Source: Salinicola aestuarinus
GTDB taxonomy: Bacteria > Pseudomonadota > Gammaproteobacteria > Pseudomonadales > Halomonadaceae
Assembly: GCF_003206645.1 (NCBI RefSeq)
Contig: NZ_PZJP01000017.1
Span: forward strand, 83,304-147,303
Direction of reading: 5' to 3'
DNA length: 64,000 bases
The notes beneath the pieces were generated by a model. The model saw nothing but the letters and a program-made list of their open reading frames with translations, made no database searches and was not told the DNA's origin. The position numbers and the translations under genes were made by a program. Position 1 is the first letter of the stretch. Every line of letters starts with the position of its first letter. Shown here piece by piece: positions 11,516 to 19,134 of this stretch.

Positions 11516-11728
11516 GATCTCTTCCTCGCTATCGGTGATGGCCACGTTGTCAGACTAGCACTTCGACAACGCCCGCCGCCGGACACCCACGCGGCGCCTT
11601 TTTCACCCCATATTCAACTCATGATCGTCTTCAGTGCCCTTGACAGCCGCTACCACACGCCCCGTTGATCGAAACCGCTGCCCGGCCGACTCGCGGCGCT
11701 CGGCGCTCATCAAAAGTCCATGACCCGG

Positions 11729-11762
11729 CGCTCAAGGGCCCGCCGAAGCGAGCCCTTGAGCG
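11729..11762 (-). terminator. Hairpin downstream of the SMC-like gene
   Basis: A perfect 11-bp stem (CGCTCAAGGGC at 11729-11739 and its complement at 11752-11762). It sits 34 bp beyond the stop of the SMC-like gene and probably ends that operon. The T-tract is weak, with the nearest T-run some distance away. Confidence 0.55.
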
Positions 11763-11795
11763 GTTACCCTTGGCCATTCACCGCAGGCGGGAACG

Positions 11796-14700
11796 CTACT
11801 CCACCGGCGCCGGGGTGACGTGAATGCCGAAAAGGCTCGCCTCGCCACTGCCACGCCCGGTCTCTTCGGGGCTGACCAATCGACCCTCGCGCACCATCAC
11901 GTGTCCGCCCTGCCCCTGCTGGCCGCCGATGACACTGCCGACCAGATACGTGGGGAAGATGCTCGGATCGTTTTCGTAGTTCGGATTGTGGATCAGTCCG
12001 ATCATCTGGAAGCGGCCGCGGGTATTGCGCAGCGACTCCAGCGAGTCCTGAATCAGTCGGCGGTGGGAGAGCTTGGAGAAAAGCCCGTCGAGGAGGATGA
12101 CGCTCTCGCGGCTGGCACGGGCACTGCGCCGGTGCTGACTCGGCAGCTCGCGCAGTTCGCGCTCGATGGCGAATTCGGAGAGTTTCACCAGCCACATCAG
12201 CGATACGGCCTCACGCTGACCTTCCGACATGTCCTCGTTGAGCGAAAAGAGTCGCCCGTGGGGACGAATGGCATCGTGCCGTAGCCGGATGACCACCTCG
12301 CGGAAGAGCCCGCGATAGATCCGACGGCGAATCTGTCGCGCCAGCTCGTCGTCGCCCCGCTTGCCCTTGGCCGGCTCGCCGGACTGTTCGAGACGTCGCT
12401 GCTGCACCGCGAGGTGGGCATCGATATCGCCGAGTAGCTGCTGGATGAGCTCCCGCACGGCGTCATCGGCGATCAGCTCCGCCTTGACCTCGAAGTAGGC
12501 CCCGCCTTCGCTGGCACGCGCGGCGACGCGCTTGAGCACGCCGAGATTGCCTGCAGCGTCGATGATGATCGAACTCAGTCGCTCGACCAGAGTGTCCTCG
12601 ATCTGCTCGCGGGAGGCGTGCAGACGCGAGACGCGACCGCGGTGCTCCTCGAGCTGACTCGATAGCTGACGATGCAGGCCGCGGAGCGAATCCAGCGTCT
12701 CCTGGCTCACTCCCTCGAGCGTTCCCAGGCGGGCGCGCTCGGTGTCGTTGAAGAGCCGGCTGGCACTGGCGGCTTCCAGCGAATCGCCGAGGGCTTTCTC
12801 GCGGGCGGCCACGTCTTTCGCCTGACGGTCACGATTCCGCGCGCGTTCGCCGAGATTGAGCCCGCTGAGCCCCTCCAGCAGGGTTTGCTGACAGGTCTCG
12901 AAGGCCTCGATATCGAACCGTTCGCTGTCGTCGGACGCCTCTGCCTCGGTGAGGGGCGCGGTGAGCCAGCGCTGCCAGCTCACCAGCGCGGCATCGAAGC
13001 GCGCCGCTCCGTCGTGATCCTGCGGCCAGGGCGCGTCGATGTCGGGCACGCTGCGCGTCGCCCATCCGTCGGGGAGTTGGCGCAGCACCTCGAGCCAGGC
13101 CACGGCCAGCTGATCGACCCGGTCCAGTGCCTGCTGATGGCGCGCCAGCCGGGTGTCGACATCGCCCTGCTCGCCGGCGTTGGCCTTGCGCCGCTCGCGC
13201 GCGTCGCGCAGGGATTGTTTCAAACGGCCCAGATCACGCTCCAGGGTGCGCTTGCCACCCTTCTCGTCGCGGACCTGCAGATAGGCGCGGATGCGGTCGA
13301 AATCGAAATCGGCGCGCCGCCCGGCTTCGCTCACCGCGGTCTGGAGCGTCGCCTCCCGCGTCAGGGCATCACGCATGAATTCGGGGCCGCCCGCCTCGAC
13401 GAACTCGCTCAGTTGCTGCAGGCGGGCGCGCTCGCCGTCGGCGAAAAGCGCGTTCATCTGCCCGCGATACTCTTCCCGACGCGCGGTCAGGGTCTCGCTG
13501 GCCAGCTCGATCTCCGCGGCGCGCTCGTCCAGCTCCGCACTCTCTTCGGCGAGGCTCGCGATCTCCTCGTCGATGGCCGTCAGACGCTCGATACCGCCGG
13601 CGGCGGCGAAGCGCTCGGCCGCCAGCCAGAGATCACCGTGACGTTCGAGCGCGTCAGCGGCCGTATCGCGCTGGGTCTGCCATTCCTCGAGCTGGGACGC
13701 CAGCGTGGCGCGGCGGGCGCGAGCGGTCTTCAGCGCCTGATCGCCGCCCACCTCGAGATACCGCTGGTAGTCATCGATCGCCTTCAACGCCGGCTCGGCG
13801 AGCCGCGGTGACAGCGCCTCGAGCGCAGTGGCAACGCGATCCCGCTCGGCCTCGAGTGCCGCAACCTGTTTCTCGGCCTGCTGCTCGATCGCCTCGCTGG
13901 CCCGCAGCGCGAGGGCGAAACGCTCGCCGTGGGGATCGAGTCGCGCCAGCTCCTCTTCCAGGGCGGCAGCACGCTCCCGGTCGATATCCAGCCGCCGCTG
14001 GGTCTCGTCCCGCAGCGCGGTGAGATGCGCAGGGTCGAGCGCGGCCTTCACCGCCAGCGTCTCTACGCCCTGCACCGCCCCGAGCGGCGCCTCCCCGCGG
14101 GAGAGCGCGGCCGAAAGCCGACCCGCCTCGATGACCGGCACGCCGCAGCCGGCGTCGATCAGACACTGCGCCGCCTGCGCCGCCACGGCCTCGCCCTCGA
14201 CCACCGGCGCGAACAACTGACCCGCGGCCTGAGCGAGCCATTCGCCGCGGCGCTGGCTGTCGGCATCGAAAGCGGAGAGCACCGCGTGCAGCGAGGTGAA
14301 GGCGATCGATTCGGCCTCGAGCAGACGCTGCGCCTGCGTCTCGGCCTCGAGTCGGGCTAGCGGATCACCCGCGAGGCTCTCGAGATAGCCCTGGCGAGAC
14401 TCGACCGCCTCCACCAGTGCCTCGCGCTCGCGCAGCAGGCGCGGGTAACGCGTCTTGGCATCCTGTAGCCAGCTATCGGGCGCGTCGACGCCGAGATCGC
14501 GAAACGTCGTCAGCGCAGTGGTCAGTTCAACGAGCCGCTCGCGCTGCTGCTCGATGTCACGCAGGTGGTCCTGATGCTCGCGGGACTCGCGGTAGAGGGT
14601 GTCGCGAAGATGAACCGGCGACGCATCGCCGTGAAACTCACGGAAGCGGGCCGGGGCGTCCTCCAGCGGCGCAAGCCGGGCGAGTTCGGCATCGATATCG

Positions 14701-16700
14701 TCACGCTCGCGCTGGGACTGGGAGAGCGTTTGCTCGAGGGTCGTCAACGCGTTCTGCTGCTCGCGCCAGAAGCCGACCGGCGAGCGCTCCGGCCAGCCTT
14801 CGGCGAACTGTTGCCACGCCTCGCGCCCGGCCGTCAGCGGCGCGAGCTCGCCTTCCAGTCGCTGGCGCCGCTCACGATGGCGCTGGAGCGCTTCGCGCAC
14901 GCTCGCCAGCTGGCCTTGCAGCGTCTGCGCCTCGTCGTCCCACTCGGCGAGCTGCTGGCCGAGTGTCTCGAAGCGTTCCTGCTTTTCTGCCAGCAGTGCC
15001 GCCGGCGTGGTGTCGGGATACTCGTGCGAGAACGCCTCGAACGCTTCGGCGGGCTGTTTGAACTCACCCATTCGCCCGAGATGGTCCGCGTGGGCACGCC
15101 GGGCCGCGTCGAGCTCGGCGGTCGCACGCGCTCGGGTCGACTCCGGGGTCTCGAGTTCGGCTTCCGTGAACAGCCCCTCGCCAAGCGCCTGGGTGTAGAC
15201 ACTCTGGTTGTCGATGAAGTCGCGCTGCCGGGACTCCAGCTGCTCGCGCTCGTGCTCGAGGCGTTCGATCTCTTCGTCGAGCGCCTCCGCATCGAGCTTC
15301 AGCGAGCGGCGATACTCGCGATCGGCGATCACCTCCTCGCGGAAGCGGTTGCCATCGAGCCCCTCGAGCGCCTCGGCGGCGTCATCGAGCCGCCCCAGCG
15401 CGCGGTAACGCGCGGAGTCGTCGGCAAAGGCGTGGCTGTCGGCGAGCCACGCGCGCGCCTGTTCGAAGGCGACGTGACCCAGATCGCGGGCACCGACCCA
15501 GTTCGCCGTCGGCAGGTGCACCAAGCGACGGTGGGTATCGACGCGCGCGCCCCGCTCGGAGAGGGCCTGGCGCACGTTGCGCTCGCGCTGGCCGCTGAGC
15601 GTCGCCAGCAACCAGGTGGAGACCCGCGGCCGCTCGGTGTCGCCGGGCGCCCACGCTAGCCCGCTCGCATCACTCGCGGCGGCGCTGTGCGTATCGCGTG
15701 ATGACTCGGTATCGCCCGGTAGACCGGCCATTGGCGCCAGCGCCCGTCCGCCGAGCAACCGTTCGGCGTCGAGCAGCGAGGCATCGAGGGCCGCCAGCGC
15801 CCCGCGCGACGCGAGCAGACTCTCGCCCTCGTCATTCAAGGTGCTCAGTCGCGCGACCTTGTCACCGGCGCGCTGCTGGTCACTCTCCGCCTCCGCCAGA
15901 CGGTGGCGCAGTTCGGTAATGCGCGTGCCGGAGTTGAGGATGACATCTTCGATCAGCTCCTCTTCCTCGTCCGTCTCGCCGCGGGTCGCCCCGGAGAGGA
16001 TCTGCGGCGCGAGGACCTCATAGAAGAACGCCTGATCCGCCTTCTCCCCGGCCCGCGGGCGGATGGCGTTGAAGATCTGACTCTTGTCGGCGCCCCCCTC
16101 CTTCTGGAACGCCGCAAGCTGGGCAAGCTCCCGCCGGGAGATATGCGCGCCGACCGCTTCGAGCCACTCTTCGCGATTGTGGGCCCGAGTCACGCCCTTT
16201 TCGCGCATCCCGCTCTGGACATCGGCGTTGGCGTAAAGGGCGAGCTTGCCGTCGCGGGTGACGTGATGCACCGGCACGTCAGCAAGCTTGCCGGCATAGT
16301 GGTAGAAAACCAGCCCGCTACCGTCGCTGTAGCCATACATGCCGAAGACGAAGGTCTCGCCAGCCACCTCGTCACCGGCAGCGGCGAGCATGTCCTCCTG
16401 GGCGGCGTCGGTACGCGCGCGGAACTCGACTCGCAGATGCGTCCAGCTGCGGCTCTCGCCGTTGACCTTCGACGGCGAGCACTTGCGCCGGGTCCGGGTC
16501 AGCAGCTGACGATCACGGGAGAGCATGCCGATCAGCGCTTCCGCCAGCGTGGTCTTGCCGAAGCCATTTTCCATGCTGATGGCGCTGGACTGACCGCGCA
16601 GATCGAGCAGCAGATGGCGCATTTTTGCCTCCCAGGGGGAGGCAATGTCGCCGTGCTTGTTGAGCAGGTTGGCGATTTCGATTCGGTTGATGACGCTCAT
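11796..16700 (-). CDS. SMC-like ATPase of an MksB/JetC-type condensin
   Basis: 1634 residues. The N-terminal head has a P-loop-like 'MENGFGKT' (residues 43-50). Long Glu/Arg/Ala-rich coiled coils follow, broken by a globular segment at about 310-455 and a hinge-like non-coil segment at about 795-890, near the middle. The C-terminal head has an ABC signature-like 'MSEGQREAVSLMW' (from 1491), a Walker B strand 'SVILLDG' (Asp1538) and a switch His ('LIHNP', about 1571). This is the arrangement of SMC, MukB and MksB proteins, which hold and move DNA. It is third in a three-gene operon with 4-bp overlaps, as in mksFEB/jetABC. Two oddities: the first P-loop Gly is Met43, and the usual catalytic Glu after the Walker B Asp is Gly1539. 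It is longer than I expect for typical MksB/JetC proteins. Family assignment rests on architecture and gene order. Confidence 0.8.
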   Translation of the reverse strand: MSVINRIEIANLLNKHGDIASPWEAKMRHLLLDLRGQSSAISMENGFGKTTLAEALIGMLSRDRQLLTRTRRKCSPSKVNGESRSWTHLRVEFRARTDAAQEDMLAAAGDEVAGETFVFGMYGYSDGSGLVFYHYAGKLADVPVHHVTRDGKLALYANADVQSGMREKGVTRAHNREEWLEAVGAHISRRELAQLAAFQKEGGADKSQIFNAIRPRAGEKADQAFFYEVLAPQILSGATRGETDEEEELIEDVILNSGTRITELRHRLAEAESDQQRAGDKVARLSTLNDEGESLLASRGALAALDASLLDAERLLGGRALAPMAGLPGDTESSRDTHSAAASDASGLAWAPGDTERPRVSTWLLATLSGQRERNVRQALSERGARVDTHRRLVHLPTANWVGARDLGHVAFEQARAWLADSHAFADDSARYRALGRLDDAAEALEGLDGNRFREEVIADREYRRSLKLDAEALDEEIERLEHEREQLESRQRDFIDNQSVYTQALGEGLFTEAELETPESTRARATAELDAARRAHADHLGRMGEFKQPAEAFEAFSHEYPDTTPAALLAEKQERFETLGQQLAEWDDEAQTLQGQLASVREALQRHRERRQRLEGELAPLTAGREAWQQFAEGWPERSPVGFWREQQNALTTLEQTLSQSQRERDDIDAELARLAPLEDAPARFREFHGDASPVHLRDTLYRESREHQDHLRDIEQQRERLVELTTALTTFRDLGVDAPDSWLQDAKTRYPRLLREREALVEAVESRQGYLESLAGDPLARLEAETQAQRLLEAESIAFTSLHAVLSAFDADSQRRGEWLAQAAGQLFAPVVEGEAVAAQAAQCLIDAGCGVPVIEAGRLSAALSRGEAPLGAVQGVETLAVKAALDPAHLTALRDETQRRLDIDRERAAALEEELARLDPHGERFALALRASEAIEQQAEKQVAALEAERDRVATALEALSPRLAEPALKAIDDYQRYLEVGGDQALKTARARRATLASQLEEWQTQRDTAADALERHGDLWLAAERFAAAGGIERLTAIDEEIASLAEESAELDERAAEIELASETLTARREEYRGQMNALFADGERARLQQLSEFVEAGGPEFMRDALTREATLQTAVSEAGRRADFDFDRIRAYLQVRDEKGGKRTLERDLGRLKQSLRDARERRKANAGEQGDVDTRLARHQQALDRVDQLAVAWLEVLRQLPDGWATRSVPDIDAPWPQDHDGAARFDAALVSWQRWLTAPLTEAEASDDSERFDIEAFETCQQTLLEGLSGLNLGERARNRDRQAKDVAAREKALGDSLEAASASRLFNDTERARLGTLEGVSQETLDSLRGLHRQLSSQLEEHRGRVSRLHASREQIEDTLVERLSSIIIDAAGNLGVLKRVAARASEGGAYFEVKAELIADDAVRELIQQLLGDIDAHLAVQQRRLEQSGEPAKGKRGDDELARQIRRRIYRGLFREVVIRLRHDAIRPHGRLFSLNEDMSEGQREAVSLMWLVKLSEFAIERELRELPSQHRRSARASRESVILLDGLFSKLSHRRLIQDSLESLRNTRGRFQMIGLIHNPNYENDPSIFPTYLVGSVIGGQQGQGGHVMVREGRLVSPEETGRGSGEASLFGIHVTPAPVE

Positions 16701-17713
16701 CGCCGCGCTTCTCCCTCGTCCTGCATCTCGCTCGACGTGCTGTCTTCATCGAGCGACGTCTCTGCGGATGTCGGTTCCGTCGACGTGTCCGACGGCCCTG
16801 GCGTCGACTCACCGGCGTCGGTCGTCGCCGAGTCGGTCGGCGCGCCCTCTGACATCCCCTCTGCCCCATCCTGCGCGGGCGTCTCGGAGCGTGACGCGCC
16901 GTCTTCGGGCGGCGTGTCCTGCTGCCCGTTCGAGGCAGTCACGGCGGCGTTGTCGGCCGCCTCATCGTGCTCGCCGGAGGTGAGTTCGATCAGATGGGTC
17001 AGGTGATGGACGCCGATCTGCTCGGCTTCCAGCGCGCCGAGCAGCGTCTGTTGCCAAACTTCCTCGTCTCCGGCATCACGCACCGTGTCGAGATGACCGG
17101 CGCGGCCGAGCAGATCGATGAAGGCACGCACGCGGCGCGGGATATCCTCGCCGCGTTCGTCGAGCAGCACCCGGCTGTTCTCGGGGGCGCGGTCGCCGAG
17201 GCCACGCAGTGTCTCCAGCTGGTTGCGCACCAGATCGACCAGCTCGCGAGTCACGAAGGTCGCTTCCTGGTAGCGGCTGACGTCGGAGAGAGCGCGGTTG
17301 AGTCGGGTATAGATCAACGTATGCAGCAGCAACCACAGCTGTAGATACCAGAGCGCCAGCTCGTTGCGACTCTCCTGGCGCAGCTTGAGCGCCTCGAACA
17401 CCGGCTCGCGAGTGAACAGCGGCGGCTGCTCGAGCTCGGGGTCCGGCAACAGGGCGAAGAACCGCGATCCGGGCGCGATACCGGGATAGTCACCGGCCTC
17501 GAAGGCCTTGAGGCGCAGCCCCTGGCCGGCAAGAAAATCGCGCAGCGCTTCGCGCTCGGCCTCCTGGGCGTCGTCGATCAGCGCGCAGACATCGCGCTCG
17601 GAGAGTTGCCCCTCCCGTGCCGCCCGGCGCTTGCGCCCGCCGCTGGGCACGCGCTCGGCGGTGCGATAGCGCAGCAGGTAGGCGACGACTTCGCCCATTT
17701 CCATCATGTTCAT
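16697..17713 (-). CDS. MksE/JetB-like condensin accessory subunit
   Basis: 338 residues. Residues 1-240 are mainly helical with winged-helix-like character ('MGEVVAYLLRYRTAERV', 'ALWYLQLWLLLHTLIYTRLNR', 'ATFVTRELVDLVRNQLETLRGLGDR'). The last 90 or so residues are a low-complexity, strongly acidic Ser/Thr/Asp/Glu/Pro tail that looks disordered. The start ATG overlaps the stop of the upstream gene in ATGA, and its own stop overlaps the SMC-like ATG in the same way. I assign it as the MksE/JetB position subunit mostly from gene order and size; direct similarity cannot be verified here. Confidence 0.6.
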   Translation of the reverse strand: MNMMEMGEVVAYLLRYRTAERVPSGGRKRRAAREGQLSERDVCALIDDAQEAEREALRDFLAGQGLRLKAFEAGDYPGIAPGSRFFALLPDPELEQPPLFTREPVFEALKLRQESRNELALWYLQLWLLLHTLIYTRLNRALSDVSRYQEATFVTRELVDLVRNQLETLRGLGDRAPENSRVLLDERGEDIPRRVRAFIDLLGRAGHLDTVRDAGDEEVWQQTLLGALEAEQIGVHHLTHLIELTSGEHDEAADNAAVTASNGQQDTPPEDGASRSETPAQDGAEGMSEGAPTDSATTDAGESTPGPSDTSTEPTSAETSLDEDSTSSEMQDEGEARR

Positions 17714-19134
17714 GAGTCAACGTCCTGTGTCTCGACCGTCGCTGCCGCCTGTCGTCGCAGCGATGGGGTAACGGCGCCTTCGATCCGGCGGCCGTCGGGA
17801 AGTTCGATTGCAAAGGGAGTCTCGTCGATCCCCACACTCAGCGCGTCGCCGAGCAGCTGGGTATCGACGAAGGTATTCAGCAGCTGCGCCAGGCAGTCCT
17901 GGGCGTCGAAGTGGTGCCAGCCTTCGGCGATGGCATCGGGCAGAGACATCGGCGCACGGTCCACACGCTTTCGCAGCGACGGCCCGCGGGCGCGCAGAAA
18001 CCGCGCCAGCAGCGGATCGGCGGCGGGCCGGTCACGGGCCTCGTCAAACACCAGCGCGGCACCGCTGCGTTCGGCGCGCCGGGTCTCGACCAGCGGCGCC
18101 AGCGTTTCGGTGCGCGGCAGACTGATATCGGGCGTCAGCGGCATCATCCGCGCCACCACCGCCTCCTGCAGCCGCGCCGGCGGCGGCGCGACCAGCAGCT
18201 GATGGGCGAGCCCGGCGAAGTCGATCACGCCCATCGACTGGATGCGCCCCTCGGCGATATCCGACAGCAGCTCGGAGAGTCGACGCGACAGGTTCTCGAT
18301 GGCGTTGAGCACCCGGCCGATGGCACCGGAGAGCATGCGCAGATCCCACTCCTCGTCCGTTTGTCGCTCCGCCCACTGCTCGAAGTGATCGATCAGCGTC
18401 GGTGTCGACATCTGGGCACGGGCACTGAGCAGCGTGCTCTGAATGGTGCTCAGGGCATTATGGTAGTGGCGCTCGTTATCGAGCAGCGCGGCGAGCTTGC
18501 CCTCATGGGTCGGGTTCTCGCGCACCCGGCGTAGCTCCTGGGTCAGTGCGCGGATGGCCATCAGGATCTGCTGGGTGATATCGGGCACGCGGGCGTAGTC
18601 GCCGCGGGAGAGCGCGGCGACGACCTTGGCGGCGTCGTATTCGGAGTAGAGAAGATCCTCGACCTGGCTCGCCAGCGTCACTGCCTGACGGCCGCTGGGG
18701 GTCAGTCGCACCTGCCCGGTCTGACCCTGTTTTTCGATCAGCGCGGTACGCTTGGTACTGCGTCCGCCTCGCGCGGTGGACGAGGTCTCGGACATGTCGT
18801 CATCCAGCGCGGCGTCTCGCTCGCGATAGTGCACTTCGCTGGGCGTCGCGAGCAGGTTGACGACGAAACTGAGATCATCGGCGGGGAGGTCGGGATAGTC
18901 GCCGCGAAGCTGGGCGAGGCAGCGACGCTGCGTGACGAACGCGCTGTTGGTGGCAAAATCCACCTCCAGCAGATAGTCGAGCAGCAGACACCCCAGGTCC
19001 AGCCAGTAGCCATCGCGCAGGCCGCGACGCTGCTCCTGCGTGACCTGAACGAACGGCGATCCTGGCTCATGGGCGCTGTCGTGCAGGTCGAGCAGCCGGG
19101 TCGTTGCGGTGAGCAGCTTGTTCCAGGCGGTCAT
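17710..19134 (-). CDS. MksF/JetA-like kleisin subunit
   Basis: 474 residues from an ATG preceded by GGAG at 5 bp spacing; an upstream in-frame extension to 19206 is less likely. The N-terminal half looks helical with a winged-helix feel ('GYWLDLGCLLLDYLLEVDFATNSAFVTQRR', 'LIEKQGQTGQVRLTPSGRQAVTLASQ'). Middle helices ('ALTQELRRVRENPTHEGKLAALLDNERHYHNALSTI') suit a coiled neck-binding segment. The C-terminal part again looks like a small winged domain ('AIAEGWHHFDAQDCLAQLLNTF'). First-gene position and size match MksF/JetA (about 480 residues), the kleisin that bridges SMC heads. Function is inferred. Confidence 0.6.
   Translation of the reverse strand: MTAWNKLLTATTRLLDLHDSAHEPGSPFVQVTQEQRRGLRDGYWLDLGCLLLDYLLEVDFATNSAFVTQRRCLAQLRGDYPDLPADDLSFVVNLLATPSEVHYRERDAALDDDMSETSSTARGGRSTKRTALIEKQGQTGQVRLTPSGRQAVTLASQVEDLLYSEYDAAKVVAALSRGDYARVPDITQQILMAIRALTQELRRVRENPTHEGKLAALLDNERHYHNALSTIQSTLLSARAQMSTPTLIDHFEQWAERQTDEEWDLRMLSGAIGRVLNAIENLSRRLSELLSDIAEGRIQSMGVIDFAGLAHQLLVAPPPARLQEAVVARMMPLTPDISLPRTETLAPLVETRRAERSGAALVFDEARDRPAADPLLARFLRARGPSLRKRVDRAPMSLPDAIAEGWHHFDAQDCLAQLLNTFVDTQLLGDALSVGIDETPFAIELPDGRRIEGAVTPSLRRQAAATVETQDVDS

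What the first reader, a model, noticed from the sequence alone, without database searches (positions are those of the whole stretch)
11796..19134. Three-gene MksFEB/Wadjet-like condensin without the JetD/MksG nuclease
Three genes overlap by 4 bp (ATGA) in the order kleisin-like (474 aa), MksE-like (338 aa), SMC-like (1634 aa), matching jetABC. Downstream there are only about 280 bp with a hairpin and then a thiamine-binding-type gene on the same strand; upstream is an unrelated aldo/keto reductase. Wadjet needs the JetD toprim nuclease to cut plasmids, so this version more likely shapes chromosome structure, or works with a nuclease coded elsewhere. The accessory subunits are so divergent that only context identifies them, so a new subfamily is possible.
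Basis: partly seen in the sequence, partly recalled or inferred. Interest (0 to 1): 0.75.

Follow-up and report, generated by a model that had tools for sequence, protein, structure and literature searches.

The report
Plasmid-cutting SMC operon missing its nuclease
A salt-loving bacterium carries three genes for a ring-shaped DNA motor of the kind that normally works with a plasmid-cutting enzyme; many relatives have the motor without the cutter, which suggests the motor does something useful by itself.

Summary
In detail: three co-directional genes with 4-bp overlaps encode a probable kleisin (MukF/JetA-like model), a two-winged-helix KITE protein (JetB-like model) and a 1634-aa SMC-type ATPase. 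No JetD lies beside them, and none was found in the genome with the profiles tried. Two distant members are four-gene operons. So this is a divergent Wadjet-group subfamily in which the nuclease gene comes and goes, mostly by loss (at least 12 state changes on the SMC tree). The core stays under purifying selection: dN/dS of kleisin and SMC 0.05-0.16 in jetD-less pairs, 0.05-0.21 in jetD+ pairs. All 70 SMC proteins have Gly where SMC, JetC1 and MukB have the catalytic Walker B Glu. Best reading: an accessory chromosomal loop extruder or clamp beside SMC-ScpAB, derived from an anti-plasmid system. Function is inferred, not shown.

The parts
17710..19134 (-). JetA/MksF/MukF-type kleisin, 474 aa: N-terminal winged helix (about 43-144), helical middle (146-300), C-terminal winged-helix-like region (374-461)
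   Evidence: No convincing Pfam/NCBIfam/PADLOC hit. AlphaFold model pLDDT 69.6, pTM 0.38. Foldseek ranks 1-5 are MukBEF or MukE-MukF entries (best 9gm7_C, E 1.8e-4, the only one under 0.001; TM 0.16-0.23); VIA-align MukF 1t98_A Z 13.8, 203 aligned, rmsd 12.7, and 7nyw_C Z 12.4, 134 aligned, rmsd 2.6.
16697..17713 (-). JetB/MksE/MukE-type KITE subunit, 338 aa: two winged-helix domains (3-90 and 155-246), then a tail of low model confidence
   Evidence: AlphaFold model pLDDT 70.8, pTM 0.56. Foldseek rank 1 is 8dk1_E (JetABC, E 4.9e-3), rank 2 7nyw_F (MukBEF); VIA-align 8dk1_F Z 10.2 (180 aligned, rmsd 4.2) and 8as8_C Z 10.2 (183, rmsd 4.4), next row Z 7.6. That these chains are JetB and MukE is inferred from their lengths.
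11796..16700 (-). JetC/MksB-type SMC ATPase, 1634 aa: Walker A MENGFGKTT (43-51), signature MSEGQ (1491-1495), Walker B ILLDGLF (D1538, Gly1539 in place of the catalytic Glu), switch-type His1571
   Evidence: hhalign to a JetC profile 96.2%, E 2.6e-9 over the N-terminal head; motifs.
11729..11762 (-). strong 15-bp hairpin after the SMC stop codon; weak T tail
   Evidence: not listed by the terminator scan
11546..11795 (-). gap where relatives carry jetD and/or a cyclopropane-synthase-family gene; no jetD trace here
   Evidence: tblastn of relatives' JetD: none in 11.8 kb downstream nor in the whole window; alignment to L001 stops at +1 after the SMC stop and resumes at +255

Best explanation
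The block encodes a three-subunit SMC complex (SMC dimer, kleisin, KITE) of the Wadjet group, from a divergent subfamily whose ancestral operon was most likely F-E-B-D with a JetD nuclease. In this lineage, and repeatedly elsewhere in Halomonadaceae, jetD was lost while the motor genes were kept under purifying selection. The most likely present job is accessory folding or segregation of the chromosome (loop extrusion or ATP-gated DNA clamping) beside canonical SMC-ScpAB, as reported for Pseudomonas aeruginosa MksBEF. Shown: gene content, folds at model level, no JetD found, repeated presence/absence change with remnants, purifying selection, a mostly shared chromosomal neighbourhood. Inferred: that most changes are losses, that a complex forms, that it acts on the chromosome, that it hydrolyses ATP.
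For: Fold matches for F and E. B N-head homologous to JetC. Relatives' fourth gene is JetD: of the 23 full-length copies, 16 were aligned and all 16 match JetD_C and PADLOC JetD1, with invariant Glu and DxD; hhalign to canonical JetD 98.3%. Of 24 block-bearing genomes in the 58-genome set, 3 have this JetD, each beside the block; none of the other 21 has it anywhere. jetD fragments in L027 and L040 and abrupt breakpoints between similar flanks point to loss. JetD distances correlate with SMC distances (Spearman 0.73, 231 pairs; F 0.68, E 0.47) and the JetD tree keeps the main genus groups. Distant members L133 and L134 have all four genes. dN/dS of F and B 0.054-0.162 in 10 jetD-less pairs, 0.048-0.207 in 7 jetD+ pairs. 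Found in 18 of 18 genomes of the window's genus that were sampled; 53 of 64 loci with 6 kb downstream share LysR, cyclopropane-synthase or thiamine-binding genes. SMC and ScpA present, MukB not found. Precedent: PMC10586767, passages read.
Against: No functional data. Sequence links of F and E to JetA/JetB are absent or weak, so their identity rests on moderate-confidence models and gene order. The missing Walker B Glu could mean poor ATP hydrolysis, hence no ordinary loop extrusion. Direction of the jetD change in Salinicola is open: the reading frame in L043's jetD-less gap resembles that of other Salinicola gaps (by eye), so L041 may have regained jetD. The block is patchy outside the genus (6 of 19 other same-family genomes and 0 of 21 other same-order genomes), unlike an indispensable condensin. 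PMC10123090 (passages) draws a four-gene mksFEBG operon for P. aeruginosa PA14, so the Pseudomonas precedent does not hold for every operon of that species.
Confidence: 0.6

Rival explanations
1. Defence without its own cutter: the complex still senses and reels in small circular DNA and restrains it by sequestration or silencing, or by recruiting an unrelated nuclease.
For: Related to JetD-bearing operons; no relaxation of selection on the core is visible without jetD, so ancestral sensing may persist; one block-bearing genome (G032) has an intact unrelated JetD_C gene elsewhere.
Against: No JetD_C or subfamily JetD found in this genome; mostly shared chromosomal neighbourhood and presence in 18 of 18 genus members sampled look unlike typical mobile defence genes.
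Confidence: 0.22
2. Decaying remnant: the operon lost its nuclease and is on its way out, without present function.
For: Patchy presence in the family; SMC gene in three pieces in G014/L044; jetD of L047 seems frameshifted.
Against: dN/dS in jetD-less pairs, e.g. window against L001: F 0.076, B 0.136, E 0.235; open frames in the other sampled genus members.
Confidence: 0.05
3. JetD is an optional accessory: a chromosomal complex is primary, and the nuclease gene comes and goes at its 3' end by recombination, gain as well as loss.
For: At least 12 state changes; difference between S. salarius DSM 18044 and 1A01339 with 98.9-99.0% identical flanks; no visible effect of jetD on selection on the core.
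Against: JetD tree broadly follows the SMC tree, though only 9 of its 19 inner branches are well supported; fragments point to loss; the two distant intact members and the broken plasmid relative have JetD.
Confidence: 0.2

Closest known systems
Wadjet (JetABCD / MksBEFG / EptABCD)
   Same: Kleisin-KITE-SMC gene order, KITE model closest to JetABC chains, SMC N-head profile match, JetD in 23 of 70 related loci
   Different: No JetD here; the window proteins hit no JetA or JetB model and JetC3 only weakly (E 0.052, coiled coil); the SMC is longer (1634 aa) and lacks the Walker B Glu
P. aeruginosa MksBEF without nuclease, as described in PMC10586767 (passages read)
   Same: Three-gene form beside SMC-ScpAB; proposed origin by loss of JetD
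   Different: Sequence-divergent subfamily; jetD presence still varies among close relatives; no functional data
MukBEF
   Same: Kleisin model matches MukBEF entries best; same gene order F-E-B in the MukBEF operon read here (L123); nuclease-free
   Different: No MukB found in this genome, which has SMC and ScpA; SMC profile against one MukB aligns only coiled coil (4.7%)
Wadjet type III JetC (L121, JetC3 by PADLOC, 2209 bits)
   Same: Walker B without Glu (ADNPLG); similar length (1481 aa)
   Different: No significant profile match to this family (single sequence)

Membership tests
Wadjet (JetABCD) | JetA-type kleisin with winged-helix ends | tested here: met
   At model level: MukBEF entries on top; 9qe0_E (Wadjet-II JetABC, JetA by length) spans 5-465 at Z 11.3, rmsd 29.6. 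Sequence profile alone fails
Wadjet (JetABCD) | JetB-type KITE with two winged helices | tested here: met
   Model level; sequence profile weak, 17%, E 0.0015
Wadjet (JetABCD) | JetC-type SMC ATPase with homologous head | tested here: met
   N-head 96.2%, E 2.6e-9; C-head comparison not significant (E 0.2)
Wadjet (JetABCD) | Walker B Asp-Glu pair of the ATPase | tested here: not met
   Asp-Gly in 70 of 70; DEAF in 8 of 8 JetC comparators. Not a universal feature: the one type III JetC seen (L121) lacks Glu too
Wadjet (JetABCD) | JetD nuclease in the operon | tested here: not met
   Not found in window or genome; present in 23 of 70 related loci
Wadjet (JetABCD) | cleaves or restricts plasmids | not testable with these tools
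   needs bench work
MksBEF-type three-subunit complex | SMC, kleisin and KITE genes in one operon, no nuclease | tested here: met
MksBEF-type three-subunit complex | role in chromosome organisation | not testable with these tools
   inferred by analogy with P. aeruginosa
MukBEF | MukB N-terminal domain (PF04310) | tested here: not met
   no match in G000 (the control rang in E. coli)
SMC-ScpAB | SMC_prok_B / ScpA models | tested here: not met
   the genome's SMC and ScpA matches lie on contig C29; this block is on C9

The most novel reading that the evidence does not exclude
A distinct Wadjet-group subfamily whose SMC motor works without the Walker B glutamate (DGLFS, with a switch-type His), so that ATP is used by altered chemistry or only as a clamp switch, and in which the nuclease is a dispensable add-on to a chromosomal or DNA-sensing function that is the main object of selection.
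Probability: 0.35. Interest if true: 0.8.

Novelty: new variant of a known kind. Interest (0 to 1): 0.6.

Why it matters
A review already suggests that a Pseudomonas condensin arose from plasmid defence by losing JetD (PMC10586767, passages read). Here that kind of step appears repeatedly within one bacterial family, even as a difference between two strains of one species with nearly identical flanks. That is a natural experiment on whether a Wadjet motor has a job of its own. The subfamily's missing Walker B glutamate also asks how an SMC ATPase can run, or whether it must, without that residue.

Tried and rejected
Sequence-only identification of F and E: no convincing Pfam, NCBIfam, PADLOC or PDB sequence match; hhalign of F to JetA failed (0.2%) and E to JetB was weak (17%). 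Identity rests on folds and order. For B only the window protein, not the alignment, was scanned against PADLOC and Pfam.

PDB sequence searches with B gave nothing or coiled-coil noise. B against single MukB or type III JetC gave nothing significant. JetC3 model PDLC00582 in 299 phylum genomes: nothing, controls silent, uninformative. DUF2399 in the own genome: nothing, controls silent. JetD3 model PDLC00592: 2 of 185 class genomes, not the own one, controls silent. Families not listed in the fold tables are not excluded.

A replacement effector in the jetD slot of jetD-less loci: downstream genes differ (globin, thiamine-binding, cyclopropane synthase, RES domain, GGDEF; one representative of each checked) and no consistent substitute was seen.

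Mobility: no phage match for F; on plasmids a partial match on two P. aeruginosa records, one of which was read.

Rows dropped before counts: the tree left out L007, L070, L012, L017 and L044 (second copy, fragment, partial or frameshifted). L017 and L051 end within 0.7 kb of the SMC gene, so their jetD state is unknown; L051 was nevertheless scored jetD-less. L070 holds part of a jetD and is not among the 23. L047 is among the 23 though its jetD seems frameshifted after the DxD motif. L012 was left out of the JetD/SMC distance comparison. Six mixed jetD+/jetD- pairs were also run (F 0.046-0.073, B 0.068-0.158, E 0.051-0.225). A first Walker A pattern missed L044, L047 and L070. Searches failed on an empty L053 entry and were redone. 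An earlier claim that the JetC comparators all have a D-loop Asp was wrong and is withdrawn: 5 of 8 do.
Full report
WHAT IS THERE. Three minus-strand genes, 19134-17710, 17713-16697 and 16700-11796, overlap by ATGA at both junctions. The window lies in a genome whose nearest SMC relative is Salinicola halophilus L001 (86%); on a quick tree (SH-aLRT only) it sits in a supported 16-row clade of which 14 of the other 15 rows are named Salinicola. The genome, G000, has 33 contigs and is listed as 100% complete. GC of the block is 68.1% against 64.7% for the rest of the window; other 7.3-kb tiles run from 60.0 to 67.1%, so it is slightly high. Downstream is a thiamine-binding protein gene, upstream a divergent aldo/keto reductase.

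IDENTITY. None of the three window proteins matches Pfam, NCBIfam or PADLOC convincingly. The kleisin model (pLDDT 69.6, pTM 0.38) finds MukBEF or MukE-MukF entries at Foldseek ranks 1-5, only the first under E 0.001 (1.8e-4) and with TM-scores of 0.16-0.23; by VIA-align MukF 1t98_A comes first (Z 13.8, 203 residues, rmsd 12.7), 7nyw_C superposes 134 residues at rmsd 2.6 (Z 12.4), and a Wadjet-II JetABC chain (9qe0_E) spans 5-465 at Z 11.3, rmsd 29.6. Helical bundles score high by chance, so this is supportive, not proof. The KITE model (pLDDT 70.8) has two winged helices; two JetABC chains of JetB size come first at Z 10.2 (8dk1_F, 180 residues, rmsd 4.2; 8as8_C, 183, rmsd 4.4), clear of the next row at 7.6, though no Foldseek match is under E 0.001. 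The SMC N-head aligns with a JetC profile at 96.2%, E 2.6e-9.

THE NUCLEASE. JetD_C (PF09983) was not found in G000, with the control ringing in C. glutamicum, but rings just after the SMC gene in G009 (same genus), G021 and G035. In the 70 loci, a cluster of about 345-380-aa proteins begins at or within about 25 bp of the end of the SMC match. With three more frames found by tblastn (L035, L039, L053), 23 of 70 loci have a full-length jetD; L070 has part of one; L027 and L040 have fragments; 44 show no trace in the up to 10 kb held downstream, of which two (L017, L051) end too soon to judge. Of the 23, 16 were aligned: 16 of 16 match JetD_C and PADLOC JetD1, with an invariant Glu and DxD; hhalign to canonical JetD gives 98.3%, E 1.5e-14. 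A profile of them finds this JetD in 3 of the 24 block-bearing genomes of the 58-genome set, each time adjacent, and in none of the other 21. G032 has an unrelated intact JetD_C gene and G030 a broken one away from the block. No jetD homology was found in the window.

LOSS OR GAIN. On a tree of 66 SMC proteins (22 jetD+, 2 fragment, 42 without, the window included; counts) the trait needs at least 12 changes, or 28 if only losses are allowed. Fragments, abrupt breakpoints (L018 against L021: flanks 93-95% identical, about 1.1 kb missing; L052 against L050: similar), the agreement of JetD with SMC distances and of the main tree groups, and two distant four-gene members favour an ancestral F-E-B-D operon with repeated loss. 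The distant members L133 and L134 match window F (28%), E (35-38%) and B (27-28%) by tblastn and their fourth gene matches PADLOC JetD1 and Pfam JetD_C. Within the genus the direction is less certain: 1 of 18 genomes has jetD, and its same-species partner L043 has a gap frame resembling, by eye, that of other Salinicola. In L001 a cyclopropane-synthase-family gene lies between the SMC gene and the thiamine-binding gene; the window has no match to it.

SELECTION. NG86 dN/dS: ten jetD-less pairs, kleisin 0.054-0.162, SMC 0.058-0.136, KITE 0.077-0.237; seven jetD+ pairs, kleisin 0.048-0.207, SMC 0.077-0.205, KITE 0.047-0.158. Pairs are few, partly share members, come from different genera, and a few have dS above 1, so I claim only that no relaxation is visible for kleisin and SMC; KITE reaches somewhat higher values without jetD. 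The core thus seems kept for a function that does not need JetD. Of 64 loci with 6 kb or more downstream, 53 share LysR, cyclopropane-synthase or thiamine-binding genes (cluster labels checked on one representative each), so the locus looks settled. Outside the genus it is patchy: 6 of 19 other same-family and 0 of 21 other same-order genomes. A kleisin profile found the own genome and two others in 369 class genomes, and three in 398 phylum genomes: the own one, one of its genus, one of its family.

WALKER B. All 70 SMC proteins contain DGLFS: Asp followed by Gly where the catalytic Glu stands. The register rests on motif spacing and on an hhalign match that is not significant by itself (E 0.2). 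Eight of eight JetC comparators have DEAF and the genome's own SMC has DE; three comparators were typed, all JetC1. MukB L123 has DEAA. The one type III JetC seen, L121, has ADNPLG, so absence of the Glu is not unique to this family. L133, L134 and the broken plasmid relative have DGLFS too. The D-loop position is Ser here; 5 of 8 comparators have Asp there. A His (1571) stands at the switch position, as in the genome's SMC and, by eye, unlike the eight comparators. How ATP is handled is open; that the His compensates would be speculation.

HOW IT WORKS. Most likely an SMC dimer closed by kleisin and KITE reels in or clamps chromosomal DNA beside SMC-ScpAB (SMC and ScpA found, MukB not). PMC10586767 (passages) states that a P. 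aeruginosa MksBEF contributes to chromosome organisation and likely arose by JetD loss. PMC7617805 (passages) states that MukBEF and several other Wadjet-group members lack JetD. PMC7083940 (abstract and passages) reports that C. glutamicum MksBEFG, which has the nuclease, does not fold the chromosome. PMC10123090 (passages) draws a four-gene operon for P. aeruginosa PA14, so that species has both kinds of report. The analogy is suggestive, no more.

NOVELTY. JetD-less Wadjet-group complexes are known. I found no paper on this subfamily in the held library: Salinicola with Wadjet and Halomonas with MksB gave none; Halomonas with Wadjet gave one paper, and Wadjet with Walker B and glutamate gave one (PMC10123090); a search on Wadjet, JetD, loss and condensin listed 15 of 21, seen as listings except those named above. 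Subscription papers are mostly not held, and the operon list of PMC7617805 may contain the subfamily; I could not read it. New variant of a known kind.

Noticed in passing
L044 / G014 (Salinicola tamaricis F01): The SMC gene matches in three overlapping pieces (1-216, 203-610, 601-1634), so it is frameshifted or the assembly has errors.
   Followed up: partly
L132 (P. aeruginosa plasmid pPUV-6): A broken relative of this subfamily: only the C-terminal part of the SMC is matched, near a Tn3-family transposase, followed by a gene annotated as Wadjet JetD-domain protein.
   Followed up: partly
L116 / G032: A genome with the jetD-less block also carries a separate JetC1-JetD pair; intact JetA/JetB frames upstream were not seen in the simple ORF list.
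   Followed up: no
L021, L022, L067, L068: In these jetD-less loci a bacterial-globin-like gene starts almost at the SMC stop codon, where L010 has jetD and then the globin gene (family checked on L010 only).
   Followed up: partly
L070 (MAG labelled Chloroflexi): Its fragment carries a jetD start identical over 124 residues to Salinicola salarius L041, so the contig is probably a binning contaminant.
   Followed up: no
L006 and L007 (MFB021): Two contigs of one assembly carry equally scoring copies of the SMC gene; duplication or assembly artefact not resolved.
   Followed up: no
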